From NCBI GenBank assembly GCA_022539475.1, contig VCMS01000096.1, positions 1 through 64,000 on the forward strand: a stretch of 64,000 nucleotides of DNA. Reading direction: 5' to 3'. Under the pieces are notes generated by a model. That model saw only the letters and a list, made by a program, of their open reading frames with translations, was not told the DNA's origin and ran no database searches. Source of the DNA: Gracilaria domingensis. Taxonomy: Eukaryota; Rhodophyta; Florideophyceae; Gracilariales; Gracilariaceae. A program made the translations under genes and the position numbers. This document shows, piece after piece, positions 257 to 41,111 of the stretch. How positions within the stretch are numbered: position 1 is the first letter of the stretch; the number at the start of each line of letters is the position of its first letter.

Positions 257-2780
257 ATGGATTCCACCGATGTTGGAGAGGAGATACATCCTATCGACAT
301 GAGTGCTCCGCCTCCGGCGTTCCATGCATATGTCAGACTTTTCTTGGTTCTTCGCGATGCTTTGGCAAACAGCGATGGAGGCCCTGATCGGCCACGGGAC
401 GTGGGGTTTAGAGGGTTAATAGAGTTCTGCGCCGAGAACTATAAGGATATTCCGGAGGCAAGGAAGATGTTTGAGGAGGCCACTAACTCCAAGAACCTGC
501 AGAACTTGACACTGCAACAGCTGCGAAAGAGTGTTGTGAATAACAAACCTGTGGAACAGCGATATCTTGTAACGAAGCTTCTTGACAAGAAGGACGGGGA
601 TGAGGACCAGAGACTGCGCGATTTTTTCCTTCTCTCTATGGATATGGGTATATACCTACCGGTGCGATGCCTGGTTGGTTATTTCATGACCAGGAGAAAG
701 CAGGTTCTGAAGACGACAGTGTTCATCCCACCAACAGCTGTGAACCCATTTGAGGTCGTTATATACTTATCATACCTCGGCCACATAATGGGAGAGAACG
801 ACAACATCCGAATGATGAAGAAGAAACAACCGAAAAAGAAACGAAAAGTGAACCATGCACCATCTGTGTACATACCCACTTTTACGTCGTTCTCCAAAGA
901 CAACTGTGATCGACTGGGATTCGCTATCAGTGAGGTCGTATGGGCATGGAGTTGTTTTGCGGCTCATCTTGGATACACGAACGTTCAGCACATGGTGAAA
1001 CCATACATTTACATGAATATGCAGACGTTGAAGTATACAGCGCTAGAGACACGGGAGTCTGGTTATGCCCCGCCGAGCCAGAGTACTCGATTCAACACAA
1101 AGGATGTGCCACAGAGCAGTACTAGTGGATCGGTGGAGACCTTGAGTGATGAATGCGATACAAACCTGCGAATACTGGCTAAGGAGTTTTTGACAGACCT
1201 CGAAACCATATGCACCCACGATAGCCTCTATAGCTTACGGGTTGATCAGATGAGGAACTGGATAGAGTTTTCGGAGATACGGATGGATACCGTATCTAGC
1301 TCTGACTCCGGTGAGTTGCCTGCTCGATTTCAGAAGTTTTCGGAGTTGCTATGGAAACCGATACAGGATATGCGTCATGCGGCAGGGTTCCATGTCGGCA
1401 TTCACGCGAAACCTGATATTGAACTGACGAAAACCCCTAAAACTTCCGGTAATGCCGAACCTTCTTCGACCAAGTCTGCCCCACCCCCACCTCGTCGAGA
1501 GTATATGAACCTCGTGAGCTCCGATAGCGACGAGTTCGAGAAGCCGGTGAATCTTGCGGAGCATGAATCTCGGGTTGCCGGTTACAACATCCAAAAGACT
1601 GGTATTGAGCCGCCCATGAAGGGGATATCCAGTCTCCTTCGAATGAATATGGACAAGGTGTGGAAGGGGATGAGAAAGTCACACTTTGTAGCGTACAACT
1701 GTGACATGAAGGACCTGAGGCACACACACGAAACGTTTGTGAATCAGAGTGAGATTTTATGGGGTGAGGCACAGCTTGTCCTAACAGACCCTCCCTTTAA
1801 CACTCGAAGGAAGAGGAACAAACGGAATAGTGGTCACGATGTCTTCAGTGAGGAAGACATGATCCGTACGGCTGACTTAATAAGTTCCGCGCTTCGGTCA
1901 GGTGGGCACTTCATTATATTCTGTGCCATGGCACAGTTTCATGTTGGCACAGGATACTTTCGGAAACGGCGAGTACGAAAGATGAAGCTGGAAGCGAAGG
2001 TAAACCAGAACTCATGCCTTCGTTTAAAGTGGATGCGAATCCACTGGTGTTCATCCGGGATCGCAGTAATGTTGGAGGGAATCCACGGAAGTTTGGGATA
2101 CAGCCCGTAACGGAGTACGCCGTTCATGGGGTGAAGCGTGGATTGCGACCATCGGAGGAAGCCAGTCTTACTCCATTTGAGGAGAACAATTTCATTCCTT
2201 CTACTTTCCCGGCTAACAGGAATGTAATTGACCGGGTGCCAAACCGAGAGCGGGGGAGTGGTTGACATGGAAGGTACATGAGCCAGGTAGTTCAGTACCA
2301 GGTGGGCAGTACATAAGACCGGAGCAGAAGTCGAGGGAGTTGATGAAGGAGTTGATATGTCGCTTCACAAGACCGGGTGATCTTGTCATGGACATGTTCG
2401 CGGGAACTTTTTCTACGGGTATGGCGTGCCTATCGCTGACAAAGCATAGGAAGTTCTTGGGGTGCGAGAAGAATAGGCCATGTTTCAGCCATGCGAAGCA
2501 CCATCTAACGACTCTTATGGCCGAAGTTATTCGCGGGGGGAAGAATGACATCCTGGTTGAACAGGAGGTGGTGGATGCGGCTTCAACGACCTATGAACGG
2601 GTTCCACATCGGGACCGAGGTCGGCTTGAATGGGAGGCTCCATTTGGTTACCCCCAGTACCAAGTGATGCCTGGACATATTACTCAGTTCCTAGGAAGAT
2701 ACTGGAAGGACTGGGACTTTGTCGAGAAGTGTGGACAGCGTACTGTAGATCTTTGGGAGGGAAGTACCGAGGAGCTCTGA
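257..2780 (+). pseudogene. Beta-class DNA N4/N6 methyltransferase, copy 1 (frameshifted)
   Basis: The ATG at 257 opens a frame that runs past the catalytic motif DPPF (1787-1798, residues 511-514, preceded by LT), followed by a motif like GGHFIIFCAM. The AdoMet-binding motif DMFAGTFSTG comes later (2391-2420). Catalytic motif before the F-x-G motif is the order of beta-class amino-methyltransferases (N6_N4_Mtase family). About 500 N-terminal residues are not recognisable, but they are conserved in the copy at 30850. They include PKKKRKV, a textbook monopartite nuclear localisation signal, so the protein probably acts in the nucleus. Comparison with copy 2 places one frameshift near 1945 and another near 2260; the stop is at 2778-2780. 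The target base (A or C) cannot be read from the motif with confidence. A SET gene starts 5 bp downstream. Confidence 0.8.
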
Positions 2781-2785
2781 ATCTT

Positions 2786-3391
2786 ATGGATATGCATATG
2801 CTGTTGACTGTTGAAGCCAATCGCTATCGCTTACATATAGCATCTTCTAAGATTCGACATCCCCGTGCTGGTATGGGGGTGTTCACGGAACATAAGATAT
2901 TGGCTGGGGAAACTATCTGTCATTTCTATGGAACTTTGGTATACACGGATCTGACGAACCGGAAGGAAAGACACTTAACGTATGGAAGTGGCTGTCTCGG
3001 AGCAACTCCAGTGCGGTACAAGTTGTTTTCTATGATGGTCACTGTGACTGGTACGGAGTTTCTGCACCTGAGGAACAGACCAGGACAGGCTCAGGATAGA
3101 AAGGAGAGCGAAGTCTACATTGTCCCGGCGCCTTTTTGTATCGGGGGCTACATTAACGACGCCGGATATCATGCCGGGGATCCCGATTTATCGGAGCCCC
3201 GGTCAAACAGGACTCGAAGTGCCAATGTGCAGGTGGTGGAAGCGAAGTCCGTGATACAGTTTAAGTCAGACCTTTCTAACTATGCTCTACTTCGTTGTAG
3301 AGCAGTAAGAGATATTGAGAGGGGCGAAGAGTTGTATTTCAACTACGGAGAGCAGTACGCCTGGGACTGGGCTCTGACATTGGAGCAATAG
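2786..3391 (+). CDS. SET-domain protein (putative protein lysine methyltransferase), copy 1
   Basis: About 201 residues from the ATG at 2786, almost all SET domain. The N-terminal motif GMGVFTEHKILAGETICHFY matches the G-x-GVF...GE-I core. The middle has GGYINDAGYH, in the place of the usual RFINHSC/N-rich pocket, and a later NVQVVE strand. The C-terminal RDIERGEELYFNYGEQY supplies the GEEL and catalytic-type Tyr (NYG) motifs. The family transfers methyl groups from AdoMet to lysines, most often on histones. The frame stays open upstream to 2630, overlapping the methyltransferase in another frame, so the ancestor may have been one methyltransferase-SET fusion or two adjacent genes. A broken copy lies at 33540-34040, after the second methyltransferase. 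Confidence 0.75.
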   Translation: MDMHMLLTVEANRYRLHIASSKIRHPRAGMGVFTEHKILAGETICHFYGTLVYTDLTNRKERHLTYGSGCLGATPVRYKLFSMMVTVTGTEFLHLRNRPGQAQDRKESEVYIVPAPFCIGGYINDAGYHAGDPDLSEPRSNRTRSANVQVVEAKSVIQFKSDLSNYALLRCRAVRDIERGEELYFNYGEQYAWDWALTLEQ

Positions 3392-3573
3392 ATGAGTTCA
3401 GTACCGAATAGAAAGTAAATATGCTTGTGAGTGTTGCAGCTGCCTGCAATACGCGTTGTTGTACATGTACACTGGAGCTCTTCATCTGTAACGGCGATAT
3501 TTGCGACCCATTGGGCACCTCAAATTCCTAAAAAGCAGGAACTGCGGAGTCTCCCGGAATATCTGAACCATGC

Positions 3574-3602
3574 ACCCCCCCCCCACCCCCTCCCCCCTCC
3601 CC
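3574..3602. repeat. C-rich homopolymer tract
   Basis: Nearly pure C run interrupted by A and T, lying between the SET gene and the next reading frame. Simple repeat; length may be unreliable in the assembly. Confidence 0.8.
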
Positions 3603-3639
3603 AACAATTTCGTTTCATTACCCTGTTTATCTCCACAAC

Positions 3640-4520
3640 ATGGGTATAACGCCGAGAAAGCGAAATAGTACGCAGCGGAACAAGAGTGGACAGAAGAAGA
3701 GAAGAGCATCGGATGATACGAATCAGGCTACAAGCACCGCACTTCCTAAACGGAAGTCGTCCTCGACGAAGGAGAGAGTCAGTGGGCGTCCTTCTACAGG
3801 ACTCTCTCGCCCATCTCGCAGCGGAGCGTCTTCCGGGATTGCGTCAAGAATTCGTGGATCAGCGAACGATGTCGTGCCGTCAACTGCCGATAATGCAAAT
3901 CGTGCATCTGTCTCTGCTCCTCAAGAAGATGAGGTAACTCGGCCCAGCGGGTCAGGACAGGAGGGCATGACAACTGGAACCGAAGAGGTTCGTATGACAC
4001 CAAAACCTTCATGTCCCCGGCCGATATCGAAGACCGGAGCTACTGGGGCGCGGGTTACGCCGCCCAGTGGATCTGGACAACAAGGGACAATGACGAGAAG
4101 TCGTGAGAGCCCTAGTATATTAAGATCGTCACGTCCATCCCTGTCTTCTAGAACTGGGGCCGCTATGAATCGTATCATGCCTCGCAATGGGTCCGGACAA
4201 GGGAGAAGACAATAAGAAATCGAGAGACAACTGATAGACGAGTTACTCCTCGACCTTCCCCTCTTTCCAGAACGGGGGCCGTTGCAGCTCGTACGAGGCC
4301 CAATTCATCTGATATACCATGCCATGGAGGAGGACAGACACGGGAGTTGGAGCTCGGAGCCGTGCCAAGGGTGGACACAGAACGCCTGCAGCCTCTCGTG
4401 TCTAAGGCTATGGCACATGAGGATAGTTCCGATAACGAAATAACACCGAATCCTGCGGCATTACCGGGGCCTGTCGCCGAAGAGGCTAGGGAAATACCGG
4501 AAGATATCACACTGGTGTGA
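3640..4520 (+). pseudogene. Basic disordered protein with about 41-residue tandem repeats
   Basis: The ATG at 3640 starts a Lys/Arg/Ser-rich, low-complexity protein (MGITPRKRNSTQRNKSGQKK). From about residue 100 it has three to four repeats of roughly 40 residues, each with a P-x-GSGQ core followed by a Ser/Arg-rich stretch and a TGA-x-x-R ending. The frame breaks near 4195 and continues in another frame to a TGA at 4518-4520, where the composition turns acidic. No enzyme domain is seen. Position between the methyltransferase/SET genes and the transposase suggests element cargo, perhaps a DNA- or chromatin-binding protein, but that is inference. No clear counterpart was found in copy 2. Confidence 0.5.
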
Positions 4521-4531
4521 AATCAACCTCT

Positions 4532-6031
4532 ATGAACAGACGTGATCTTTTAAATGAACTGAATTGCTTGAAAGAAAAGGTTAAGACGCTACAAAGGACT
4601 TGATGGTTCGGGGAATTCTAGTGAAGGTCGCCCAAGAGCAGAGTACGGCTTTGAAAAAGAGGCTTGAAGAGAAGGATCTAGTCATTGAAGGGCTAAGAGG
4701 GGCACTGAAACAGGAGGGAGATAGGAGTACACGTGCTGGTGAACCTGGCCAGACAGGTCGAAAGAAGCATAAAATTGAGGTGTGCGACGAGTTTCGAGGG
4801 GTTGCTCGAGCATTGTATCACAACATGCTGACGTGGGCAAGGAGAGAAACAAGTGAGCTATGGCTCGAAGGTGAGTCGCTCACCCGAAATTGGGGTAACC
4901 GTGCCGAGAAGGTGGAAGACGCAACTGAGAGTGGGAAGGGCTTATTGAGCCGGAGGAAGGTGGTTCATACATGGTTCCTAAAAACCCCGTGGAGCTCTTG
5001 GGCAGTTTTGGCATGTTCACACCGTCGGTAGAGGGGAGCCAGATGCTTTGCTGAAGAAAATGGTTGAAAGCGAGTTGAAGGAGTTGAGCTGGGAAGGTAT
5101 TAGAAAAGCATCTCTTACCGACAGGTGTATACTGGAACTTTGTGCAGATATGTGCCTTAGGCAGAGAATGCGGCAGACCATGAGTGACGTCGTGGGCGTT
5201 CGTAAGAGAAATACGAGGGATAAACTATTTCTGCTCCTGGGGTACGATCTGATTTGGAGAAGAACAAAGCTGGTAGAAGAGAATGCTGACGAACTCACAA
5301 TGCAGTTGAAGGAAGCGCGGGAGAACATACTGCGTCTTGACGAAAATGGTGTACCGAACACTTCATGGTGGAGAAAAGCCCCATTTGTTCGTCTAAAGTA
5401 CTCCAATGCGGACAATGTCGAGGATATGCCGACGGAAGATCAAGACTTGTTCTTCCGAAACCGTGTCGGGGTACAAGTGCTGAAGGAGTTTATTGGGTAT
5501 GATGTGGAAGACAAGGATACGGGCACCTTTTTAGATGGCACAATACTGTTGCTCGCACGTTTGGACGCTTGGGTGTTGACGGTTGTGAGCCTTCTAAGTA
5601 CGGATGTGTCAAGGGGTGGCCAGAGACAGAAACTGTTTACAAAGAAGTTTGCCGAACTGCTACCTCTGTGTTTAAAGAATGTTCTGGGGGATGTTAGGCA
5701 ACGTGTCTTGAGGACCAATTCCAGCTAGTTTCATAATTTTGGAACGACAACGGAAGATTGGACTAAGGTTCTTGGTAATGACATGAGAGAGACTACATTT
5801 GGATATCGAATGCCGTCGAACGGAAGACTTTACCTCACTGTGAAAGAACAATTTTTTATTGACAGTGTGAGCCGAAGATTGGGGTCTATTAGCGATTGCT
5901 TCGTTGGTGAATGCGAGGAAGGGGATATGGAGTTCAAGGAAATGGACATGAACGATTTCGGAAGTAACACAGGATCACAAGAAAAGGCACCACAAGGTGA
6001 ACATGTAGAGGATGGAGCCCTTAATGTTTAA
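4532..6031 (+). pseudogene. Helical/coiled-coil protein, broken into several frames
   Basis: Begins at an ATG at 4532 with a heptad-like stretch (LNELNCLKEKVKTLQ), shifts frame near 4600, and continues as Lys/Glu-rich helices (STALKKRLEEKDLVIEGLRG). It shifts again near 5035 into a frame rich in Leu and charged residues. That frame crosses an in-frame TAG at 5726-5728 and ends at 6031. Read together it would be about 490 residues. No known domain was recognised. It has the strand and spacing expected if co-inherited with the methyltransferase and SET genes, and it converges on the transposase at 6074. Confidence 0.45.
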
Positions 6032-6073
6032 GGCTGTACAAGATCAACTTGCTCAGTTGGTCCTTCATCTGAA

Positions 6074-9000
6074 TCATGATAGAATCGATTGATGTAGAAT
6101 CGGTGTTGAAACCATTGAAGTGGAGGACAAAAAGGTGGAGCAGGGTAGTTTGATCGAAACAACATGGACAGTTCCCTGTAGTGCAGAAGCCGGAACCATC
6201 CCGTACCTAGGAGTTAACTCTACGATAGTCTCCGCTTTGGAATGACGAGGGAACGGAAGAGTGTGGTTCTTTTCATCGTTTGTAGCCCACCGTAAAGATA
6301 TGCATTTCAATATGTCTTCGATGTTTGTTGCGGGGGGTAAAACCTCGAAATACCGGACGAATGCCACCTCTGGTGCGGTAAGTGCAGAATCAAGGAGAGA
6401 TATTCGAATCAGAGCGACTACGTGGGCCACCCAAGTCTCTGAATCTTCTCCGCTTACCAATACAGTGGAAAACTTTGGCTTTCTACTGGGACCAAATGCT
6501 GGAGAAGCGAAGACACGTTGGATGATGGGGTATTTGGGTCGTCCCAGCTTAAGTGCCTTAGAAGACGAATCGAAGTGTTCAAGAGTCAGAACGAAACCGC
6601 CTTTCAGGAGGGCCGAATTCACCAGAGTTATCCTTGTCTTTTCTGGGAAGTATGCAATAGAGTGCTCATCCAGTGTTTCTTTCACGAGACTGAGGAAAGA
6701 AGGAAGAGCCTGTTCACCAATATGATCAAGAATCGACCTTGTGTCCCTACTTGAGAACATCTCTCTAACATCAGTCCAGGTTTTTGAACTGGACATACTT
6801 GAAACACAATGTTGAAGAGCTCGTAAAGTGAAAGAACGCCCTCTCATTGCAAACCGAGGAAGCTGTGTGGAAGTTCCTGGTAAACCTGGATTACGCTGGT
6901 AAGGAGTATTGCCATTCCATTGCTTTCTAACATGTCCGTGCTCAATGTAGCGAATAGTCTCCTCCACAGCCGTTGCTGTTCTTCTGGACGTCTTTTTGTA
7001 GTGTCTTTTAAATAGCAGGTGTGCATGTTCGTATATGCCTGCGTCGTAGTACTTGATACTTCCCAGACGGCGAATATCGTCCACGAGATGATCGAGAAGA
7101 TGAAACTTCAGAGTTCCCAGTCTGGAGGGATGAAAATCCGCCAGAGTGTTTGTTGCGGAACGCTTGAAGGCTTCAATCTCCGAACTAAGACACAGGAGAG
7201 AGCTTTCAGTCCAATACGGGTCACGATTGTATCTGAATAAGGTCGAAAGCAAGTCCGAGTACTGACAGAAAACGGTTGTGATTGGGGCAACGTCCTGTTC
7301 TCCACAGCATATGTCAAAGAATGCTCCTATGAAGGGAAAGACCATGTCAAGTGCTTTGTAGTTTTTTGCCTCCAGCATTCCACGGAGAGCGTCTTTCGTG
7401 AGGATACCATTCAAAGATTTGCCTTTCTCCTGCGTGGAGAAATCGATATGTAAACCTTTGGCAGGAGAATCGCGTTCTATGGCAGCTAGAATTGCGTTTG
7501 CATGGTTGAGGAGTTGGGTGCGTATCGTTCGAAATGAACGCGATGCAGATGTTCCTATTGTGGTGCACAGGGTGTCTGACTGCAGTCTCTCGATTGTGGC
7601 CGTTTTTATCAACTTTGAGATGCCGAGATGCAAGTTGTGTAATGGCTCGAATGAGAACAGACTGTATGGAGACAATCCCGGGATCATTCCAAGGCTTACG
7701 GAAGTTTCGAGGAACGAAGGAATGAGAGATATGGAATTTGAACGCATCAGAGTATCCGCTTGAGATCTCCTCTCCCTCGCACGACGTGGACGTCTTTCCG
7801 CCTCGTCTTTTTGTGCATGTTGCAAGATAGCTGTGTATGTCTTTCGGATGCTTTTCGTGTGCTTTTGAGAACGTCCGTTGAATGAGGTGGGAATAGGACT
7901 GCATAAAGATGAGCGAGGGGCTTTGCATCTATGACACGGGCTTTCCGTTTTGGTCCCATGAAGAATGGACAGAATGTCCTTAGTCTCAGGAATATCCGCA
8001 CAATAACTTGCAAGCAGAGGATGGCACACTCGACTTAGTTTGTCTTCGCCGATGAACTGAAAACCTTTCTGCGTGAGATTTAGAATGGGCTCCAGGACTT
8101 GACGAAAAGATTCTTGAAGGATTTGCATCCTGGACTCGCGTAGAGACTTGCTAGAAACGAATGGCATTGCGTCTGCTTCAGATGCGGAAACCTCGATCAG
8201 TGTGGTAGGGAAGTATGCCAATACTGTGAGGTCATCACGGATACACTTACGGCGAAGCTCGTCGGAGAAGTTGAGAAATATGAGGTGAAGAGGATAGGCG
8301 GTAACCGATGTTTGCTTTAGAGTTGTTGAAGACTTATCGTTGTATACCTGCAGAAGACCTACGAAAGATTCACTGTAACTTATTTCTTGGGAGTACCACA
8401 CTATTCTACTATCCAAAGAGCCCATGACCATTTCCTTAAGTTTGAGGTGGCGTCTCTTGCGAGAGAGCCGGACATGGGGTGAGATATTTTCGTGGAGTGG
8501 GTCTGAGATATAGGGTGGAAGAATGTGTTTTCGTTGTTAGCCAACTGGAGCTGTTTCACAAGTGTCTGAACGGGGTCTCTCGTGTAGAGGGTGGCGCTGA
8601 ACTTACATCCTTCTGGCGAGACAGTTCTTCGATTGAACCCCGTCCTTTGAGGCGTATCGTTCGAAAATGGCCTTCTTCAGTTCTGTACAGCGCTTGGAAC
8701 TTGTTATGGTCTCGTTGAATCGCTTTTGCGAGAATCGCGGGTCCCGAAGTAGCCCAATTAGCTCGTCGGCCTCACGATGACCAAGGTTGGAAGCTACTCA
8801 AGCCAGACAAACCGTGAGATAATCCATATGCAAATCACCGAGGGTCTCCTCAGAAGGCACTGGGCGGGAACTGCTTCCGTGTTCTCGCTCTAATGACGCG
8901 GAACCCGGGGAAGGAGAAACACAATGCGAAGTGTCCGGAATGGGAGGGGCGCACGGAGTGGGGTCGACGAAGTCCTCGGACACCGGAGGCTCGGGAAGGC

Positions 9001-9304
9001 GACAAGGGGCAGTGACCGTTTCGGAAGATGCGGGCGCGGGTGCGGAAAGCTTGAGACGCTTGCTTCTCCGAATGGGCCGGCTATTGTCGTCTTCCAGCGC
9101 TGTTTTCAGACGAAACGGGCAATGGTTGACATGCTGTTGAAGAGATAAGACTCCTCGGCGAGTAACGAAGGGGCACCCATGCTTCTTATGTGTACAGTAG
9201 TAGACCATGGGAAGAAGAAATGAACGAGAAACGACGACAAAGACTGCAAGGGAAGGTTGTAAGAAGGGAGAAGGAGGTCGAGCGACAGTCAAGATCGACG
9301 TCAT
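6074..9304 (-). pseudogene. tnp2/Plavaka-like (EnSpm/CACTA superfamily) transposase, copy 1
   Basis: Reads leftward. The likely start is the ATG at 9208 (MVYYC...), although the frame is open to an ATG at 9304. The N-terminus carries a single C2H2-like finger (YYCTHKKHGCPF...H...C), as seen in Plavaka-type transposases, then a Pro/Ser-rich linker and an RRSKRLK nuclear signal. It breaks near 8798 and is continuous again from 8431 to 6074 (785 codons). Core motifs match copy 2 at 37955-41111: DIPETKDILSILHGTK followed by a CHRC metal-binding motif, PLHNLHLGISKLIK, and FHLLDHL...YEHAHLLFK near the C-terminus, comparable to the conserved E-x-x-H region of this group. The role would be DDE-type cut-and-paste transposition. 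It is disabled by frameshift and stops between 8431 and 8798. Confidence 0.7.
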
Positions 9305-9618
9305 GCTGAGAACGGAGAATATATTTTGAGTTTAAATCACGTGCTTTCGTTCAAAAAGGAACGTAGTTACACGTCGACCTCAACACAAGGGTGTACTTCT
9401 CGTATTATCTACCACCGGTTATAAACCTGTGGTTTCGCAACGTTGTAGGCTGTACACTTGTCTAATCTCGCACAGAAAAATAAATCTCTTCCCTCCGCCG
9501 CCGCCGCCGCCCGTCCGACGTCCGACCTTCTGTTACGGTCGTGATCCGTGCCATCCTCGCGTTCTACTCCGCTCCGTCGTACTTTTTTCCGCCCTCGCAC
9601 TCGCTACGAAGTAGCGTG
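9305..9618. other. Non-coding interval with CCG microsatellite
   Basis: No gene seen. A short (CCG)n run sits at 9495-9510. This is where a terminal repeat of the transposon to the left might lie; none was identified by eye. Confidence 0.4.
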
Positions 9619-9703
9619 CGGAGAAAGAGAATGAAGTACGCTTCATCTCTGCTTAATGGATTCCATTAAGCGGACATGAAGCGTACCTCATTCTCTTTCT
9701 CCG
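9619..9703. repeat. 85-bp imperfect palindrome
   Basis: Left arm begins cggagaaagagaatga and the right arm ends tcattctctttctccg. An inner palindrome (gcttaatgga/tccattaagc) forms the tip. The strand can fold nearly end to end. It resembles a tiny fold-back element or MITE relic. Confidence 0.8.
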
Positions 9704-9896
9704 CCCTCGTCGGACGCCTGCATGAAGCGGACAGCATCCGTATCTCACGGATGTATTCCGTGCAGTCTTTCCGTGCAGTCTTTTCGTACGTGCTTCCATA
9801 TCCTTCTACGTATCTTTGTTCTAAACTAACCAATCCTCACCACGTCTCTTCGCGCTCTGCGACATGTAAACGGCAGGAAAAAGGCTTTGGGTTACT

Positions 9897-10790: not shown

Positions 10791-10826
10791 TTTGATGCGG
10801 ACGTAGCTCACGAGTTGCAGGTGCAG

Positions 10827-10979
10827 GTTCCTCAAGTAGGGAACCATGCATCTGGGCATGGTTCCCTACATGAGGAACGGAGAGGATGAGGCGCTTCGCG
10901 CCTCATCCTCTCGGAGTGCGTATTTGTTCTACCGATACAGCACTATGGTGGAGGTGCAGTCTGCGGCATCTGCCGCAGA
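10827..10979. repeat. Cluster of three adjacent hairpins
   Basis: Three inverted repeats in a row. First, 10827-10878, with arms gttcctcaagtagggaacc and its near-complement. Second, 10881-10911, 14-bp perfect arms agaggatgaggcgc around a ttc loop. Third, 10960-10979, tctgcggca/tgccgcaga. They abut the end of the 373-bp tandem array. No ORF explains them. Confidence 0.8.
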
Positions 10980-12835: not shown

Positions 12836-12837
12836 TA

Positions 12838-29817: not shown

Positions 29818-29935
29818 TCACGTTCAAAACGGCTGCAATGCCCACGTGAGCAGTGTGGGTACAGTTCCTGATGGTTATAAATGGTTGGATCAATGTCTGA
29901 TTCCGTCCTGGTTGACCACTGTCCCCGCCTTTCAT

Positions 29936-30569: not shown

Positions 30570-30849
30570 TACGAACCCAGTGTTTTCTACGTTGGTTTTA
30601 CATACTAGACATATAATGCACTGCACATACTGGGGTGCCCCACCGGTTTGATGTGTTTAGATCCCACTCTCGTCTCTCTATTTCATTACCCGCTCAGTTC
30701 TCGGTAATCCGTCGCAGCCGCGATCTCCACCATTGTTTCCGACGCTTCCCGACGTTTCCGACGCTTCCCACCCATTTAGACATCTCCGAAACTTCTACCG
30801 TTTCACAATACTCGTTTACTTCGCGTCCTTTCCGATTCTCAGTTCTTAC

Positions 30850-33234
30850 ATGGCGTCCACCGGAAATGACGATCCTCGGACTGTTAAGCAGAGTGTGCTG
30901 GCCGATGAGAACCACGGCACGGTATCCTCTAGCGCATCCTCTAGCGCGTCGTTCGATTCAGCCAGCATGGCAACGCGTTTCTTGAAATGTTGGGGTTGTT
31001 CATTGAGTTGCGAGATGCGTATGCCGCTTCAAGAAGTGGTACTGGTAATCCGCGTGAAGTTGGGTACACGGAAGTTGTGGAATACGCTGTATCAAACCGT
31101 GAACACCTGGCATGTGCACGAGAGTTCATCACCACTGCGGTCAAGGGTCCTTTCCAAAACTACTCCGCAAAAGAACTCACGAAGATCTGTCTGGACGTGC
31201 GTTTTCTGAGCAGGGTCTACAAATGTACGCGTATCACTGATCTAGACGACGAGAATTCTGATCGGCGCGTGAGAGATTTGTTTACCTGGAGTCTTGAAAA
31301 GGATGTCGACAACGGTAACTCGTTCATAGAACGGGCTTTCTGGAATGACCTTTTCAAACGATATGGTCCAGGCAGTAAGCAGACGAAGAGAACTACGTTC
31401 AGGATTGGGCCTCCCACTCGTTTTCAGCAGTTACTCTATCTCTCTTTCGTGAAGCATATAACTTCGGAGAGAAATCTCCCAGCGGCGAAGAGAGGAAGGA
31501 CCGTGAAGGGAACCCATAGAGCTGTGCAGTTCGTCGACGGCTACATAGCTTCGAATGAGACGCACGGGAGACGGATGGCACATGCAGTGCAAACAATTTG
31601 TAAGGGATGGGATTTCTTTGCCTCAAGCTTAGGCTTTGGTGATGGTGAGCAGATGTTGCTGCCATACCTGCTTGTAGAAAAGAAGTCGCTTGGGTTCCAT
31701 GTCATTGAATCCCGCTCTGTTGGGAACAGTCCGGAGTCAGCTTTTCATACGTTGGGGAAGAACTGAAACCCACGTTGGATGTGAACGACACCGTTTCTTG
31801 GGTTCATACTCTTCCGGATACTATTGACGCCAACTTACGGGAGTTGGCAAAGGAATTCTTGGCAGATTTCAGCAAGATTGTGTTGAATGGCTTCCTATAC
31901 AAAATGTCCCCAACGTCAAGATGGAATTTGTTGGAAAGCTTCAGACCTGGCCGCCCCGCACGAGTACCACCCCGTTTCAATGTATTCTCCGAAGAGTACG
32001 TGTCTCCTATTCGTCAAGCGATGTCTGTACATAACTTCCAACCATCTCGACTTATCCCTAGGGCCGCTCCTTCAGGGCAGGATGGAGGAAGTAATACCGT
32101 CACGGTTAAGGTTGAGGACTCGATACAGATTCCGAGCTCCTCCAAGAGGAACGCCGCAGGGAAAAGCTCAGTTAGCTCCGATGTCATCGTCATCCTCGAT
32201 AGCGACAATGAAGAAGGTGATACACCTGGTGCCTCTGTTGGGGCGAAAGATAACGTTCCAGATGGGGTTCTCCCGCCTCATGACTTTGATGACACGCGCA
32301 CGTTAAATGCTCTAGATGTGGTGCGAGGAAGCATGGAGAAGCAATTCTGAATGCATTGTGTCGGATATGACGAACTGGTGGAGGCCCATGGTACTATCTT
32401 CCCATCGGATACATCTTTGGAAGGCAACGTTCAGTTCGTGCTCACAGACCCACCATATGGCATCCGCGACAGCGAGTACGACGAATTGGCTGACGATGAT
32501 ATGGACAATACTGCGGACATCATGGCATCCATGCTTCGACCAGGAGGACATTTCGTTTTGTTCTGCAGTATCGACCAGTTTGGAGACTGGGAAGAGATTT
32601 TGCGAGAGCACAAGTCGGAGGACGCAAGCGGAAAGAAAACCGCATCATTCTTAGTGGATTCGACGCCCATGAACTTCATTCGTTCTCGTTCGAAACCCCT
32701 TGAAGAACCCTGCGCGTAATACTACTCGTCTGTTTGGGGCGACGGAGTACGCCGTGCATGGCGTGAGGAATGGAAACCCGTACGCGGAACAGAAGGTAAT
32801 GGTGAACTATCAGAACTTCAACTAAGTTTCAGCTCGCTATCCTGGGCACTATTCTATCATTGACCAGGTTCCAAATCTTACGCCTGGGAGAGTCTCCGAT
32901 GGAGAGTGAAGAGTGGTAGAGAGAATTCGAACCGCGAAGGCTCGGTCCAGAACAAAAAGTCGAGCCAGCTACTGATGGAGCTGATAGCGAGGTTCTGAAT
33001 CCGGGATGTTGTGGTTGATCTCTACTCCGGGACGTTCTCGTGCGCGCGCTGGCAGTGATGGATATTTGAGGGCCTCCGGGCGTTTCATTGGATGGGTGAG
33101 CAAGATGAGCAGTGTTTCTCTCGATGCCAAGCCCAATGGCTATTGTGCATACGCAAGAAGCGTGTGGCGCAATGAAGTGAAAGATGAAAGAACCGGTTTA
33201 CGGAATTGAGCGTAGTCAAGCGTCTTTGTGGTGG
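30850..33234 (+). pseudogene. Beta-class DNA N4/N6 methyltransferase, copy 2 (decayed, cut by assembly gap)
   Basis: ATG at 30850; frameshift near 30985, then an open frame to 31766, a stop, and further frames to 32719. Conserved with copy 1 throughout: GLFIELRDAYAASRSG near the N-terminus, TIDANLRELAKEFLADF, catalytic VLTDPPYGIRD (DPPY at 32447-32458), then GGHFVLFCSIDQF. After 32719 it degrades, but TEYAVHGV, an IIDQVPN motif and a remnant of the AdoMet motif (about 33005-33040) are traceable. The protein ends in the N gap at 33235. The PKKKRKV signal of copy 1 is replaced by AAKRGRTVK. Divergence in both protein and insertions shows the two copies are not recent duplicates. Confidence 0.75.
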
Positions 33235-33490
33235 NNNNNNNNNNNNNNNNNNNNNNNNNNNNNNNNNNNNNNNNNNNNNNNNNNNNNNNNNNNNNNNNNN
33301 NNNNNNNNNNNNNNNNNNNNNNNNNNNNNNNNNNNNNNNNNNNNNNNNNNNNNNNNNNNNNNNNNNNNNNNNNNNNNNNNNNNNNNNNNNNNNNNNNNNN
33401 NNNNNNNNNNNNNNNNNNNNNNNNNNNNNNNNNNNNNNNNNNNNNNNNNNNNNNNNNNNNNNNNNNNNNNNNNNNNNNNNNNNNNNNNNN
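33235..33490. other. Assembly gap (256 N)
   Basis: Run of undetermined bases. By comparison with copy 1 it hides the C-terminus of the methyltransferase and the start of the SET gene, though the true gap length is unknown. Confidence 0.98.
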
Positions 33491-33539
33491 CGAATATCAA
33501 AAACATGCAGCAGTGGAAATGGAGTATTTTACGAGTAGG

Positions 33540-34040
33540 CGACGTTTTCCGTAAACGGGACGGTTTATTGGATACTTTTATGGGACCTTGTGTACTCATG
33601 ATCAAGGCCGCAACGCAAATACCACACCATTTGAGCTATGGAGACGTCATGCCTGGGGGGCACTGTCATACTCGGTTCAGGAAGAGTAATTGGCATGCAA
33701 GTGTGGGTGGAGGGGCAAGTGACAACATCTCTCGCAGTTATGGTTCTGAAGTCAACGCTGGCATGCCTGGATAGTTCCTGCCCTTTCTGTGTAGCGGGCT
33801 ATATCAATGACGCGTCATATTCGTGAAGGTGATAAGGACAAGGAATTGGAAAAATGGATTCAACATGGCACGCAAACAAAATGTATTCATTCGCACAGCC
33901 CACAGAGTATCAGCCAACTTTGGGGGCTTTGAGAACTACAGACTCCTGCGTAGTCACGCCCAAGGGACATAAGGAGCACAACGAAATTTAACGGTTGACT
34001 ATGGACCGCTCCCCCATATCCCTTGGGAAAAGGTAACACC
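33540..34040 (+). pseudogene. SET-domain relic, copy 2
   Basis: Fragments in several frames match the SET protein at 2786-3391. CPFCVAGYINDASYS (about 33778-33823) corresponds to APFCIGGYINDAGYH. Further on, FENYRLLRSHA (about 33930-33960) and a LTVDYG motif correspond to the NYALLRCRA and FNYG region. Stops and shifts abolish function. Its position right after methyltransferase copy 2 confirms that both genes belong to one repeated unit. Confidence 0.65.
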
Positions 34041-35514
34041 CTAGGTTCTCAGACAATGTCCTTGAACTTCGTATGGGCTCAATGTAAGTGTAGGAAAGCT
34101 TTTTGCTGGAAGTAAATTGTATTGATACAATTGTTCTCTGATGCAGACATACACTCCTATGTACACTCAAGCTGTAACTGTGTAACATATTCGAAGTGCA
34201 TATAGTGGTCATGAAGATCGTTGAAAGTGGCCGTACTTGTATGAGGCTCGGCGCAACATCCGGGAAAATCGGACCAAGTCCGGAAATAAGTGGACCGGGA
34301 AAGGTTCCAAAAGATTGAATGCCGATCCCCGCCACAATGTCCTGCAGATGTTTCTCCATGTATGCAAGTTACGAGGTTAAAATTCGTCCTCCCCTTCACA
34401 TATCAGTCCTGCACGACCGAGTACCGTGACCCTCACATATACTCATCAATCAATACTTCAGATCGTTACGTTTTCTTATCTGTTCCGTATACTACCGAGC
34501 GCACAGGCGAAGGAATCTCGGATGGCCCCTCACGTGCGGAGCATGCAGGTGGTAAAGCTGCGAAATTTTTCATCGGTACCCGCTTGCCGAGCGTCTGGGA
34601 TTACTGGGGTGGCCAAACGTAGGACGAGGATCGTACATACATACGAAGTATAGTGCTCCCTAAGGAGAGGGCGAGACCAAGCCACCTCGTGCTGGACTTT
34701 TTTTATTTGCATAACCAAAAATCTTCATGCTACAGTATCGTAAGTAAAAACCGAGAAGGAGTCAGGAGCTTCCGACATGCACTACGGAAACGCTCCACGA
34801 GTAGCAAACCGTTCAAGCCAAGATATCAATGCGTGGGCCTGTTAACACGCCACATGGTGCATATGCAAGAGCCAAGGGGTCAGTGATGATGGAAAGATGT
34901 AGATGTCAAAGCGATGAAAGGATAAAGAGAAGAAGAGCTGTACGGTCAGAATGTAAAGGAGGACAAGAGGCAGGATGGAACAGAAGGTCCTCCGTCGATG
35001 ATTGTTCGACCAAAGGTGAGAACTGCGGACTAGACAGATGGGCAAGATGGACAACCGTGGATGCGCCATCGTGACGAGCCTCAACCATAATGAGCCGAAC
35101 CTGGGGAGATCAGGGAGATACCCCAGAAGCGCTGCCGGGAAACAGTAACGTAACAGTTATGATTCGAGAGAAAAGTGAAGAGGAAGCCGAGAAATGCAAT
35201 GAGGTGTCATCTCCGCCAAGAATAGGCAGTGGAGAGAAGGAGGGGAGTCCACGGAGACGCAGGTAGATATCCAAGTACGTATCGTAGGACCATAGGATAA
35301 CGTGGAGGCGAACGATAACGTGACGCGGTGCACGCGATATGGCCCCATCGAAGGCAGGCATGATTCCGTCCTCATTATTGGGTTCCAGAACAAGAAGACG
35401 AAGACGAAGACGAGATTCAACTCGACACCTGTCACGGAGTCACAGGAAACAGGTTCATTCAGGTCAGAAGAGGACGAACCAGGAAATGAAGAATAGACGG
35501 GTGGGGAACGATCG
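34041..35514. other. Gene-poor interval
   Basis: No recognisable gene. The stretch before 35500 is purine-rich on the + strand with short open frames. It lies inside the expected span of element copy 2, where copy 1 has the basic-repeat and coiled-coil genes; no similarity was visible by eye. Confidence 0.3.
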
Positions 35515-35698
35515 GCAAAAAAAAACAAGTATAAAATAAAATAAAAAAAAGCAAAGTCAAAAAAAACAAGCACCAAATAAGAAGAATAAAAAAAATATAA
35601 ATAAGCACAAAAAAAAATGATAAAATAATAATAAATATAAATAAAAAAAAAAAAACAAATAAACATAAAAATAAAAAAAAAAAAAAAAAAAAAAAACA
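35515..35698. repeat. A-rich low-complexity tract
   Basis: Almost only A with scattered T and C, including a homopolymer of over 20 A near 35676-35695. The reverse-strand frame through it encodes Phe/Tyr runs and is an artefact. It could be an expanded poly(A) of a retroelement or slippage; the assembled length may be unreliable. Confidence 0.85.
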
Positions 35699-35766
35699 CC
35701 AAATTGGTCAATAGCCAAACGCCGGTAAGCAGAAGTATGGAACGATAAAGATGTTATCGTGGTGCT

Positions 35767-36198
35767 TTGTCACGGAGCTCTTTCCTGCATAGGTGCAATA
35801 ATGGATCAGAAGATGAAAAGATGAATCCCTTGGGCAATGGAGAGATGAAGATGATCCCTACTCCGCACAGATACGAGTTTTGGAAAAGATCGGAAACCAA
35901 GAGGATATCTGTATCCTACAAAAGACAAGCAAAACGAAATAAGCGTACGACCTTTGCTTTCCAGAAGGAAAACATAGTTTTTTTCAAACCGGGGTTAAGG
36001 TCAGAGAACAAGGAGTTTCATACACTCTTGAGAGGGCTCTCAGACGTCGAGGAAAAGAACGAATCTGACATAAACAGAGCAGGAACGTACACATTGACAG
36101 TGAACGACGAGTTTGATATGAGTTGCGATGACCGTCTACGCTCCCATACTTCATATACCCAAAAACGAGATCAAAGTGAGGCTATGCTCAGAAAATGA
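35767..36198 (+). CDS. Unrecognised 143-codon reading frame
   Basis: Lys/Arg/Ser-rich, hydrophilic peptide (YKRQAKRNKRTTFAFQKEN), ending at a stop at 36196-36198. Charged fragments continue in other frames to about 37080, so it may be the front of a decayed gene in element copy 2. No domain recognised. Confidence 0.25.
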   Translation: MSRSSFLHRCNNGSEDEKMNPLGNGEMKMIPTPHRYEFWKRSETKRISVSYKRQAKRNKRTTFAFQKENIVFFKPGLRSENKEFHTLLRGLSDVEEKNESDINRAGTYTLTVNDEFDMSCDDRLRSHTSYTQKRDQSEAMLRK

Positions 36199-37954
36199 GC
36201 ATGATTACCGCAAGAATGGGGCAACGAAGTAGACATTGGACCTGAGAAAAGACGACACGCTTGCTGTGTTGTATGGAAAGAATCAGTGACCACGGCCCAT
36301 AGATTCTTGCAGGAATCGAGGCGATTACCACGCCAATCCGTACGTTGTGTACGACCACTAGTTGAGCAAATGTGAGCGAGGTAATTGAAGCACTTCGGAA
36401 TCTATCCGAGAATGAAAATGAGATGACTGTGTAAACAGCTAACGCACGACATGTTGTTTCCCGCAAATTGAAAACAGGCTTTAAGTGATCAAGAGGTGTC
36501 AAAACTCCATGCGGAAGGAAATTTATGATAGACTTAGTTACGAGCTGCTCTGAAGGACCCCGATAAAAAATGACTAAGGGCAGAAAAGTCAAAATACAAA
36601 CCAGAGAGGTACGTGAAAAACTCCAACCAAGATGCAAATGATGTGAGATTCTCGTCCGCCATGGAAATCAGAACGTAGAAGATATATGTTTTCCGGCTTA
36701 TACCATATCCATGCAACCCCAAGATGAACCATGTCGACTGCTTTCGGAACAGCTAGCTTGGAGGGTGCTGCCGTAAAGTTTCATGGGCTACGACCGTTTA
36801 CAAACCAAATTCGAATGAATACGAAGGAGAAATCAGTGGAGATGAACAATTATGCATCTGGCCACTCTTGATAATTACGTCCGTTGCTTCGGCGAGGTCT
36901 GAAACGAGGGAGATTAAGAACAAGTGTTTCTTCTCCCAACGTTAGTCGGGAAATCTACACTTGCACATTGGATATACTCGAAGCCGTTGAGATCGCATGC
37001 AGCAGATTATCCAACAAGTCAGAAATGGCCATCGTACAAGCTGAAGAACTGCGCCAGGCATGGAATTCATGACGGCGGCACTGTGTTTACTGATTCCGAT
37101 CCCGAAAAGGAAAATGTACCTTGCTTCCGAGATCACATGACAATATCCGCAACTGATAATGATTTAGGTAACAGCCAGTCACAGCATACAGCCAATAACC
37201 ACCTTCTTGTACGTCGTAAATCGAAACAAAAATGCGCTCGACCTAGTCGCTTCTTTTTCTGTATCGCATACACTCAGATCTTAATCTTTTTCTGTAGTAT
37301 CTCCACCTCTCTCTTTCTCCGTCCCTTTGTATTAACATAATCACTGCTTTCTCCACTTTATCCGTCCAATTCATTGCTGTTATTATTACTTATTCCCCTT
37401 TCATTCTCCGATTTACTACTATACTGTTTTTCCTCTGTATCTTACGAATTTGATATATTCTGCTTTGTTTATCATTTTGTCTATTTCCCATATCGTGTTG
37501 CTTTTTCACTTATCTTCGTCCATCTCCCCTTTTCTTGTTTGCCTTTCTTACTCTTAACACTTTTTCTCCCGTAGAGTCTCTATATTTCATTTCATCCTTT
37601 CCAAGTAACTATTTCCAAGAGTTTTGCTGTTCATTGCGACTTGATGTATTCTCTTTCTCTTTTCTCCACTAATCTCGTTCCGACATATACGCTCTGTAGC
37701 TCATAAAGTTGGTTTAGGCATTGAGGAGATCTCGAATTAGGAAGCTGGAGCTTACGGATTGCTATGTTGACTCTGCGTCGGGGGTAGACCGTATGTATCT
37801 ACGACATAACTGCAGAGAGGATGTGAGGAAAGGTCTGTGCAAGAAGGATTACATGAGGAGAATTGGATAGAACGTCACTAATGCATTATGGTTTACGTTA
37901 CGAAGTTTGGTGATTGGATGGTAGTGTAAAAGAGCTCGGGATTGCTAGAATCTG
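36199..37954. other. Decayed or non-coding interval with T/C-rich tract
   Basis: Short charged reading frames at 36884-37072 and 36924-37340 without recognisable domains. From about 37250 to 37680 the + strand is strongly T/C-rich, with long stretches lacking purines. Nothing more supported. Confidence 0.35.
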
Positions 37955-40900
37955 TTAATGTAGAATCGGTGGAACTTCCAGTGCAATGGAGGGAAAAAGG
38001 GGCGTGCGGGATAGTTTTTGTCGGAGGATGTTGTACCGAGCCTTTGATCGAAGAGAATGGACGAGACCGAACCATGGGGATACAGATGCAGTTGTTGACC
38101 GTTTTAGAGAATTGGAGGTTTGCAATGTGTCATCTTCCTCGTCATCCGTGGCCCAGCGGAGGGAAATGCAGTTCAAGGATTCGTCAATGTTATCCAACGG
38201 CTCCGTTACCTCGAAGAAGCGAACAAGGCAAATTCTGAATCGGAATTGCTTTGGTTACATCTGCTAAAGCGAACCAGGGCAGAGACTTTGCATACCCATG
38301 CGGTCGGGAAGTCACAACCGAAGGAGGAGTTCCATTAGCCAGGACGGTAGAGAATTTTGGGGACTTGGAAGGGCCGAAAGAAGTGGTTGCAAAAAATACG
38401 TTCACACAAAGAGACCTCCGGCTCTCGCAGTCTAATGCATTGAAAGTGACGATCGTAGTCATCCAACGAGGGGCAGAATCCAGAAACAATGTAAGCGGAG
38501 TTAACGACGGTGATTTTGATGTCATGGGGGTTGTCCAACGGTTGAAGAGTTTCTAAGCTTAGGGTACGGAAGGAAGAGAGGCGTCGCGAGAGATTTGGTT
38601 GATGAACTGCAATGTAGTTTTGGAGAACAAATCTGTGAGAGCAGATGACGGGACGTTTGGATGGGACCGTAGATACTTGTCGGCCGTGATGATGTCGAAG
38701 AGAGAGAATGAACTACCATCACGAACCATGGAGGGACACCGCTGCGACAAACGACTGGCCGAGTTGGTAGAAATGGAGAAGTGTTTCCTTAACGAGATGG
38801 AGTGTAAGAAATCCTGCGACTCTTGGATTGAGTCCACTGTTTCCTTATGCGCAGTTGATCTTCTGCGAGAGGTACGGCGGTAGTGGTTCTTGAAGAGGAG
38901 ATGCGCGTGCTCGTACACACCTGCATCACCGAAATGGAGGCCTCCGTATCGACGGATGTCTGGAATGATGTGATCCAGGAGATGGAATTTGAGAGTACGA
39001 AAGTTGGAGGCTTGATATGGACCCAAAACTGAAACAGTTTGAGTCTTGAAGTTCTTGATGAGAGTCTCCAAAGAGCGTAAGCGATCATCAGTCCATTCTG
39101 GGGCAGTGTGGTAGTGAAGAACGTTATTGACGAGATCGACGTAAGAGGTGAAAATGGTGGTTATTGGGGCGGGAGATACTTCACCGCAGCAACGGTCGAA
39201 GAATCCACCGATGAAGGGGAAGACCATGTCGAGGGCGCGATATTCCTTTGCTTCTAGCATGCCTCTGATTCCGTCAGTGGTGAAGAAGCCGTTGAGAGAC
39301 TTACCCTTTTCAGATGTCGAGAAATCAATATGAAGCCCTGGAGCCGGAAACGAGCGTTCGATGTCAGCTAGGATGGAGTTGGCGTGAGTAAGAATAGATG
39401 CTCTGATGGACCGAAACGACCTGGAGGATCCATTGAAGCCCACGGAAGTGTGAAGAATTTCGGACTTCAGGCGTTCGATTGTGGCGAGTTTGATGAGTTT
39501 AGAGATGCCAAGGTGAAAGTTGTGAAGGGGCTCGAAGGAGAAGATTGAATAAGGAGTGAGCAGTGAAGAGATGTTGAGAAGAGGGTAAGATTCCAGAAAG
39601 GACTTGTATGGAGAGAGAGAGGTGGAGTGGAGAAGTTCTGCAGCTTCTTCTTTGAGGTTCCTTGCAACCCGTGGCCTATGGGAGAGGAGAGCAGAATCTG
39701 CCTCGAGAAGTAGCTCATCATGTCTTTTTCTGGTCTGCAAAGTGTGTGAGAGGGTTCGCTCTGTGAGAGTAGGTTGGTAGAGGTTGAGTTTTGAACGAGG
39801 GAGGAGACACCGGTGGCAGGGTTTGCTTGGCTTTGTGCCATGAAGTACTGCGAGAATGTCCTTGGCTTCGGGGATGTCAGCGCTGTAGTTGGAGATGACT
39901 GGATGGCATTGACGAAGGACTCCTTTGGCGTCGCGGAAGGGAAAAACCTTCATACCGATATGATACAGAGGTTTGAGGATGGTTTCTAGGGACGCCTGGA
40001 CGAGCTGCATGCGCACAATGCGGGTCACGCTGGGGGTTGAGAGAGCGACTTCCAAGGAATCTGTGTCAGTGGAGGACGAGTCGGAGGTGAAGGATGTGGG
40101 TATGTATCCGACGAGTGTGTAGTTCTGCGTGATGCACTTTCTGCGGAAGGAGTCATTGAAATTGAGGAGGGTGATGTGAAGAGGATACGACGTAACAGAA
40201 GAACTTTTCAAAGAGGTGGAAGACTTGTCTGAATATAGTTGAACGAGGCCGACGAACGAGTCTGTGCCGGTGATACTGGGATCGTGCCAGATGACGTCGG
40301 GGTCCGGAGAATGCATGATATGCCTCTTGATAGTCGGGACGACATGGCGGCCGAGTTCCGAAGCCATAGGGTGTGCAATTGCGGTAGTTCCTGTTCTTGA
40401 AGCTTGTTTGACTGGATGAAAGAAGGAGTTGCTGTGGGATGCGAGACGAAGTTGTTGTAGGAGAACCTGAACGGGGTCCCTGAGGTAGAGGGTGGCGGAG
40501 AAGTTATTGTTTTTGTCATGGATGATGGTTGAGGTGAACCCAATGGAGCTGACTGTTTCTTCGAAGATTTTGGAGTGCAGTTTCAGACATTCGGCAGCGG
40601 AAGTGATGGAGGTCTGGAAGAGGGAAGAGGGAAAGGTGGATTGCTTGAGAATGTTGATGAGCTCGTCAGCAGAACGCTTTCCGAGTTTTGTGGCGATGGA
40701 GGATATGTAGGTGACGAGGTTATGGATGTAGTCTTTCTGTGAGGGTGGAGAGGGGGAGAAGGCGTTACCTGAGCCTGTGGAAGGGGACTGGGAGGCGAGT
40801 TGGTGATGCGGGCTGAGTATCTGTGCTGCGTCGGATGAGCGTAGGGAGAGAGCAAGCTGTTCCTGGAGATAAGGGTCGTCGTCTGCGAGTGCTACGTTAT

Positions 40901-41111
40901 CGGACGGGCGGTTAGACGGGGGGAAGGAAGGGGGTTCGGTGTTGTTGAGTCTGCGGCGCTTGGTTCGGGGAGGGAAGTGAGATCCTCGATGAGGTGTTGG
41001 GGTGAGAAACGGGTTTGGGTCATTCCTGTGTCTGCATCGCTTCTGATGCTGGTCGAGAGAGGCGAGGGACTGTGTATGGAATGAGCAGCGGGGGAAACAA
41101 CAGTTGTGCAT
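37955..41111 (-). pseudogene. tnp2/Plavaka-like transposase, copy 2 (nearly full-length)
   Basis: Long frame of 850 codons from ATG 41111 to 38559. A C2H2-like finger at the very N-terminus (NCCFPRCSFHTQSLASLDQH...C) is followed by RTKRRRLN (nuclear signal) and a Ser/Pro-rich linker. The catalytic region has DIPEAKDILAVLHGTK followed by CHRC, PLHNFHLGISKLIK, and FHLLDHIIPDIRRYGG followed by YEHAHLLFKNHYRRTSRR. Compared with copy 1 (6074-9304), the last 150-200 residues lie beyond 38559 in shifted frames: SPKFSTVLANG near 38370, CISLRWATDDEE near 38150. So the C-terminus is broken while the body is intact. Convergent with the methyltransferase/SET genes, exactly as in copy 1. Confidence 0.75.

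What the first reader, a model, noticed from the sequence alone, without database searches (positions are those of the whole stretch)
257..41111. A large DNA transposon family carrying a DNA methyltransferase and a SET methyltransferase as cargo
Two diverged copies (257-9304 and 30850-41111) keep the same order and orientation: beta-class DNA methyltransferase (+), SET protein (+), other + strand genes in copy 1, then a tnp2/Plavaka-like transposase (-). Protein similarity runs the whole length of the methyltransferase and transposase, and SET fragments survive in both. Repetition of the unit with a transposase argues for one mobile element equipped to write both DNA and protein marks. Kyakuja-Dileera-Zisupton elements linked to TET/JBP genes in fungi are a precedent for DNA-modifying cargo, but this combination is not one I know.
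Basis: partly seen in the sequence, partly recalled or inferred. Interest (0 to 1): 0.9.

Follow-up and report, generated by a model that had tools for sequence, protein, structure and literature searches.

The report
Seaweed transposon with DNA-methyltransferase–SET fusion
A red seaweed genome carries families of jumping genes, about 20,000 bases long when complete, whose cargo is one protein that joins a DNA-methylating enzyme to a SET-type protein-methylating domain, which suggests that these transposons bring their own tools for writing chemical marks on chromatin.

Summary
The genome matches the red alga Gracilaria domingensis, not a fungus. Copy 2 is complete in the window: 21212-43250 (22,039 bp), 15-bp perfect terminal inverted repeats, TA target duplication, methyltransferase-SET remnant and Plavaka-type transposase inside. 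Copy 1 ends at 11410; its left half is lost at the contig start. In intact copies methyltransferase and SET are one frame of about 1,050 codons. Family 1 has 485 exact right ends, 500 left ends, 340 transposase-motif and 199 methyltransferase-motif sites; one 10.3-kb copy compared is an internal deletion of a 22.6-kb copy. In family 2, 11 of 13 paired ends enclose a listed methyltransferase. Two-base target duplications match in 9 of 20 pairs (family 1) and 7 of 11 (family 2). 54 homologous proteins were found, one named as Chondrus crispus. Best reading: a new variant of transposons with chromatin-modifying cargo. Marking its own copies to keep them active is inferred, not shown. The open-licence papers searched do not describe it.

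The parts
1..11410 (+). Copy 1 (family 1), right half only; equals bases 11609-22644 of the 22.6-kb copy at C34:184904-207547. The contig starts at base 1, so the left half is missing
   Evidence: 96.4% and 93.3% identity
257..3388 (+). Methyltransferase-SET fusion gene of copy 1, broken by frameshifts; intact 1,055-codon frame in L013, L018, L021, L023
3532..5725 (+). Two further ORFs (227 and 248 aa) without Pfam match, between SET and transposase
6077..9331 (-). Plavaka-type transposase of copy 1 (820-aa frame plus 177-aa N-terminal frame); open frames of 1,100 codons in other copies
9895..10789 (.). Subterminal tandem repeat, 373-bp unit, 2.4 copies
11381..11410 (-). Right terminus of family 1 (...CTAGCATCTGCAAGAGACAGACG); 485 exact 20-base matches in the genome
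11411..15425 (-). Remnant of a third, inverted, related element into which copy 1 appears to have inserted: fragment of the gene with oxygenase-like motifs at 11413-11843 (+), left terminus ending at 15425
21212..43250 (+). Copy 2 (family 2), complete element of 22,039 bp with 2-bp target duplication TA (21210-21211 and 43251-43252)
21212..21226 (+). Left terminal inverted repeat of copy 2, CGTCTGTGTTTCCGG, 15 of 15 bases match the right one
43236..43250 (-). Right terminal inverted repeat of copy 2
21765..22324 (-). Coding region near the left end of copy 2, similar to 14364-14906 (+) of the third element; positional counterpart of the coiled-coil-like ORF at the left end of family 1, without detectable similarity to it
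   Evidence: no hit here from family-1 ORFs
22986..24293 (+). 436-aa ORF without Pfam match, similar to 12892-13625 (-) of the third element
27612..28324 (-). Counterpart of the family-1 divergent gene (24-30% identity); in family 1 this part bears a ParB/sulfiredoxin-like DGxHR motif, read by eye
30856..34038 (+). Methyltransferase-SET gene of copy 2, decayed, with an N run at 33235-33490; relative with a frame open over 1,053 codons in L282
37943..41225 (-). Plavaka-type transposase of copy 2 (888-aa frame plus downstream pieces)

Best explanation
What it is (shown): a lineage of DNA transposons, about 20-23 kb when complete, with a Plavaka-family transposase, CGTCTGT...ACAGACG termini and 2-bp target duplications, in the genome matching the red alga Gracilaria domingensis. 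Its shared cargo in two families is one fused protein: an alpha-helical N-terminal region of about 440 residues, a beta-class amino-DNA-methyltransferase of the N6-adenine/N4-cytosine kind (structurally closest to N6-adenine enzymes), and a C-terminal SET domain. A divergent gene bearing a ParB-like motif is present in the family-1 copies read and, decayed, in the window's copy 2. How it most likely works (inferred): the fused protein is made by the transposon and acts on transposon chromatin, methylating DNA (probably adenine) and lysines on nearby nucleosomes or other proteins, so that the copies stay in a state in which the transposase gene can be expressed and the ends can be used; the N-terminal region, the ParB-like protein and the repeats near the gene and termini would supply targeting. 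On this view it is a transposon-fitness gene, not host cargo picked up by chance.
Against: No activity, expression or methylation data were available. The SET motif that usually reads NHSC (recalled) is ND in most relatives aligned (by eye), so protein methylation is uncertain. Many family-1 copies have lost the methyltransferase yet keep ends and transposase, so it is not needed in cis. TSDs fail in 11 of 20 and 4 of 11 pairs; among pairs with a listed methyltransferase inside, 2 of 7 match in family 1 and 6 of 10 in family 2. Bdelloid rotifers use a methyltransferase of the same fold to help silence transposons (PMC8885841, passages), the opposite sign.
Confidence: 0.55

Rival explanations
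1. Self-silencing or copy-number control: the transposon writes repressive DNA and lysine marks on its own copies so that a high copy number does not kill the host, as the rotifer N4CMT/SETDB1 pair does for host benefit.
Against: The 70 scored family-1 methyltransferases are 88-100% identical to the window's, which points to recent spread, not tight self-restraint.
Confidence: 0.2
2. Transposition control through methylation of the ends: adenine methylation near the termini gates transposase binding or couples excision to replication, as Dam methylation does for bacterial IS10 (recalled, not looked up). SET and ParB-like parts are tethering modules.
For: N6-adenine-type methyltransferase by similarity; conserved termini and subterminal repeats.
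Against: Does not explain a conserved SET domain; no recognition site was derived.
Confidence: 0.15
3. Passenger or decayed cargo: captured once, carried along, no function for the element.
For: Copies lacking it are common in family 1; both window copies are broken.
Against: Intact fusion frames in two families at 33% identity and many relatives with both domains; pN/pS 0.43 over 540 codons among 24 family-1 copies against their majority sequence (24 of the 25 found among 30 loci; biased, since the loci were picked by protein score, and shared changes count repeatedly).
Confidence: 0.08
4. The association is a segmental duplication or nested insertion, not one mobile unit.
For: Nested and rearranged copies exist (C42, third element at 11411-15425); C12 and C233 share a left flank; TSD failures.
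Against: Termini at nearly fixed distances in two families, TSDs well above chance, mostly different flanks.
Confidence: 0.02

Closest known systems
TET/JBP-carrying Plavaka, Kyakuja, Dileera and Zisupton transposons of fungi (PMC12730594: abstract, passages and section 4.2 read)
   Same: DNA transposons of several superfamilies, Plavaka among them, with an enzyme that alters DNA marks; 2-3 bp TSDs in Plavaka
   Different: There an eraser (dioxygenase) in fungi; here a writer fused to SET in a red alga; termini CGTCTGT..ACAGACG instead of TGT..ACA or CATCA..TGATG
HarbingerS and MuDR transposons of Phytophthora with SET histone methyltransferase (named in PMC12730594, passage)
   Same: SET gene as transposon cargo
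   Different: Other superfamilies and hosts; no DNA methyltransferase mentioned in the passage
DNMT-carrying retrotransposons of dinoflagellates and charophytes, and DIRS elements with Dam-like adenine methyltransferases (PMC5890265, start of abstract and passages)
   Same: Transposable elements that encode a DNA methyltransferase
   Different: Retroelements; C5-cytosine or Dam-like enzymes; a term search of that paper found no 'SET domain' and no 'red algae'
Bdelloid rotifer N4CMT (beta-class methyltransferase fused to a chromodomain) with amplified SETDB1 (PMC8885841, passages)
   Same: Bacterial-type amino-methyltransferase linked to histone lysine methylation and transposons; shared fold
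   Different: Host gene, chromodomain reader instead of SET writer, deposits 4mC, acts against transposons

Membership tests
Plavaka superfamily | Plavaka transposase (PF18759) above curated cut-off | tested here: met
   64.3 and 83.3 bits against 26.3
Plavaka superfamily | 2 or 3 bp target site duplication (PMC12730594) | tested here: met
   2 bp in 9 of 20 and 7 of 11 pairs; the rest do not match
PlavakaA / PlavakaB lineages | Termini TGT..ACA (A) or CATCA..TGATG (B) | tested here: not met
   CGTCTGT..ACAGACG in both families
Plavaka superfamily | C(2)C and H(3-4)H between second D and last E of the transposase | tested here: inconclusive
   A CHRC stretch is seen in the 888-aa frame (by eye); catalytic D/E and the H motif were not placed
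KDZ/Plavaka TET+ transposons | TET/JBP dioxygenase gene | tested here: inconclusive
   No Pfam match to it in the divergent gene; oxygenase-like H-x-D...H motifs read by eye; fold model failed, pLDDT 30
Beta-class amino DNA methyltransferase | Motif IV (DPPY/F) precedes motif I (FxG) | tested here: met
   D511-P513 before F715-G717
N6-adenine DNA methyltransferase | Product is 6mA | not testable with these tools
   Fold matches favour N6A enzymes, N4C enzymes close behind
SET lysine methyltransferase | SET domain above curated cut-off | tested here: met
   32.0 bits against 22.4; KMT2C and SETD8 at 3.6e-5 and 5.4e-5 by profile
SET lysine methyltransferase | Canonical NHSC motif (recalled) | tested here: not met
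   ND in place of NH in most of the 17 aligned sequences (by eye)
ParB/sulfiredoxin-like domain in the divergent gene | Significant match to a ParB-superfamily model | tested here: inconclusive
   Only GmrSD_N at E 0.085-0.15; DGxHR motif by eye, also DGAHR in methyltransferase-SET relative P0047

The most novel reading that the evidence does not exclude
A transposon lineage that carries a private, self-contained chromatin-writing system: one polypeptide that methylates DNA (probably adenine) and lysines on the same nucleosomes, targeted to its own copies with the help of a ParB-like partner, so that a mobile element, not the host, sets the epigenetic state at hundreds of places in a red algal genome. 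The same fusion family, with at least one member in Chondrus, would make this an old and widespread algal strategy.
Probability: 0.35. Interest if true: 0.92.

Novelty: new variant of a known kind. Interest (0 to 1): 0.82.

Why it matters
Transposons have been described that carry an eraser (TET/JBP), a SET gene, or a DNA methyltransferase (PMC12730594, PMC5890265). Here a DNA-writer and a SET domain are one protein that is part of a high-copy DNA transposon, kept through deep divergence. It offers a direct test of whether mobile elements write their own chromatin state, and of whether adenine or N4-cytosine methylation exists in red algae as a transposon mark. It also points to genes that look mis-annotated: the public record calls the divergent gene a mediator subunit or a cell-wall-anchored protein.

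Tried and rejected
Fungal origin: rejected. The divergent gene is 91-95% identical to three Gracilaria domingensis proteins, and the public contig of one has the same length (1,013,300) as contig C22 here.

Ends at the first homology breaks (A 2692, B 3998 in scripts): rejected, since C51 and C182 continue further left to a CGTCTGT terminus.

Long matching TIRs in family 1: not found; left and right ends share CGTCTGT and then diverge.

Separate methyltransferase and SET genes with introns: rejected after intact fusion frames appeared.

Whole-protein homology search: none found, probably because the words come from the first 500 residues; region 480-1045 found 54.

Foldseek against viral models lists Pandoravirus methyltransferases and a phage 'ParB/Sulfiredoxin' protein. 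Not enough to name a donor.

Structure of the oxygenase-like part: useless model, pLDDT 30; PDB sequence search gave nothing better than E 0.95. pdb_via rows covered the methyltransferase almost alone, so N-terminal and SET parts were hardly tested by fold.

Rows dropped before counts: one search took only ends, methyltransferases (exact matches) and transposases on C1-C62 that the tool listed (it lists about the first 100 places of a pattern). One search took 46 of 123 transposase rows and 100 of 143 methyltransferase rows (family-1 rows and second pieces of one gene were left out). One search took 87 of 91 listed ends (the four with 2 mismatches were left out) and the first 37 of 143 methyltransferase rows; its two 'empty' pairs, C277 and C469, do hold methyltransferase fragments lower in that table (C277:55910, C469:47674).

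Papers: PMC12730594 abstract, passages, section 4.2; PMC5890265, PMC8885841, PMC12695648, PMC10388701 passages only; all others search listings only. 'Not described' rests; Repbase Reports and most subscription journals are not held.

Full report
In the window, Pfam finds an amino-DNA-methyltransferase, a SET domain and a Plavaka transposase in unit 1, and a Plavaka transposase in unit 2; translated comparison aligns the two units over methyltransferase and transposase. An intact family-2 protein aligns over 30856-34038, so methyltransferase and SET remnants of copy 2 are confirmed too.

The whole genome can be searched (77.9 Mb, 680 contigs). The window is contig C96 from its first base, so copy 1 is cut off on its left. 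The element's divergent gene matches three Gracilaria domingensis proteins at 91-95%, a red alga; the public contig of one has exactly the length of C22 here.

Ends of family 1. Comparing copies shows a sharp right end...CTAGCATCTGCAAGAGACAGACG, followed by different flanks; in the window it lies at 11410. A sharp left end, CGTCTGTGTTCTGCAAAGTGGAATA, was found in C51, 13.2 kb upstream of the methyltransferase motif, and a near-identical one in C182. Exact counts are 485 right ends and 500 left ends, with none for the reversed control. Methyltransferase motif (up to 3 mismatches): 199; transposase motif (up to 3): 340. On contigs C1-C62, 46 left-right pairs under 30 kb were formed; 7 enclose a listed methyltransferase and 22 a listed transposase. 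Of 28 methyltransferases, 18 have a convergent transposase within 12 kb, 14 of them at 5.6-5.9 kb. The 22,644-bp copy on C34 and the 10,328-bp copy on C8 were compared: the short one lacks two internal blocks, about 3742-9380 and 11.7-18.0 kb, the second holding methyltransferase-SET. Size classes near 10.3 and 14 kb thus look like deletion derivatives, though only one was compared.

Target duplications of family 1. Two flanking bases match in 4 of 10 and 5 of 10 pairs, against about 1.25 of 20 by chance (my arithmetic: probability near 1e-6). Among the 7 pairs with a listed methyltransferase inside, 2 match. The failures may be old, nested or rearranged copies; this is not resolved.

Family 2 settles the matter inside the window. 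Copy 2 begins at 21212 and ends at 43250 with 15 of 15 matching inverted-repeat bases and TA on both sides. Genome-wide, 91 such ends exist with up to 2 mismatches, none in the control. Of 13 paired ends, 11 enclose a family-2 methyltransferase given to the script, and the other two hold fragments; the gene usually starts about 8.4-8.5 kb from the left end. TSDs match in 6 of 10 further pairs, 7 of 11 with the window copy; of the 10 with a methyltransferase given to, 6 match. For copy-2-type transposases, 23 of 46 places have a convergent methyltransferase within 15 kb.

The cargo is one protein. In L013, L018, L021 and L023 methyltransferase and SET lie in one open frame of 1,055 codons; in L282 of family 2 the frame is open over 1,053 codons up to the edge of the stretch read (one search gives 1,118). 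Pfam on the family-1 protein: N6_N4_Mtase 3.8e-15 at 506-743, SET 1.7e-7 at 873-1032. The two families share 32.6% identity almost end to end. Searching 5.8 billion proteins with the methyltransferase-SET part gave 54 relatives, 33 with both Pfam domains in the precomputed column, one named as Chondrus crispus; the host of most is not given. Family 1 is closer to P0002 (41%) and family 2 to P0003 (35%) than to each other, which suggests that the families are older than the split between these hosts. Conservation across 17 members includes the catalytic DPP.

Fold. A model of P0002 with 54 sequences is good (pLDDT 85.5): helical N-terminus, methyltransferase, SET. Nearest solved structures are N6-adenine enzymes (M.BceJIV, CcrM, M1.HpyAVI), with rotifer N4-cytosine methyltransferase behind. 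Adenine is thus the better guess, not a result.

Other genes. Family 1 has, divergent from the fusion, a long gene with a DGxHR motif like ParB and, downstream, H-x-D...H motifs like a 2-oxoglutarate oxygenase; both are read by eye, and Pfam, PDB and the model gave no support. Copy 2 keeps a counterpart of the ParB-like part at 27612-28324; its oxygenase-like part was not found there. One methyltransferase-SET relative, P0047, has a similar motif at its own N-terminus, but the two do not align significantly (E 0.2). Further left in the family-1 copy on C34 are two HAD-type hydrolase genes (4.3e-13 and, just below cut-off, 5.6e-4), an ORF without usable Pfam match and a coiled-coil-like ORF, the last named by eye.

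Mechanism. Shown: mobile-unit anatomy, fusion, conservation of catalytic residues, co-occurrence of fusion and transposase in two diverged families. Inferred: expression, DNA and lysine methylation, targeting to own copies, effect on silencing. The permissive reading is favoured because a gene that serves its own silencing would be expected to be lost from spreading copies; the rotifer case shows that the opposite sign is possible (PMC8885841, passages).

Known things. Kojima (PMC12730594) describes TET-carrying Plavaka with other termini and mentions SET in HarbingerS and MuDR of Phytophthora; PMC5890265 describes cytosine methyltransferases in retroelements and mentions Dam-like ones in DIRS. 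I found no paper with a methyltransferase-SET fusion, or with such a fusion in a transposon, in the listings. It is filed as a new variant of a known kind: transposons with chromatin-modifying cargo.

Noticed in passing
window 54548-60111: Young LTR retrotransposon: two 425-bp direct repeats at 99.8% identity enclose frames with integrase (H2C2, rve) and a weak chromodomain match.
   Followed up: partly
window 44911-47486: Three consecutive + strand ORFs without Pfam match; a 'DLMHQWPLGW' stretch recalls tnp2-type transposases (recalled, not tested).
   Followed up: no
window 62737-63591: Protein kinase-like ORF on the minus strand (Pkinase 1.7e-9).
   Followed up: no
window 29936-30569: Inverted repeat of about 184 bp at 97% identity (29936-30117 against 30569-30386), upstream of the copy 2 methyltransferase, with internal palindromes.
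   Followed up: no
window 33235-33490: 256-base N run inside the copy 2 methyltransferase-SET gene; a run of 1,121 N lies in the C255 copy (L040).
   Followed up: no
L039-L042, about 0.2-1.1 kb upstream of the fusion gene: Dense cluster of direct and inverted repeats of about 80-100 bp between the fusion gene and the divergent gene in family 1; possible shared promoter or targeting site.
   Followed up: partly
G000:C42:110523-130596: Two right ends with a transposase next to each and one listed methyltransferase between: an inverted composite arrangement.
   Followed up: no
P0056, P0057: Public names of the divergent gene (mediator subunit 15-like; cell-wall-anchored protein SasA) look like mis-annotations of transposon genes.
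   Followed up: no
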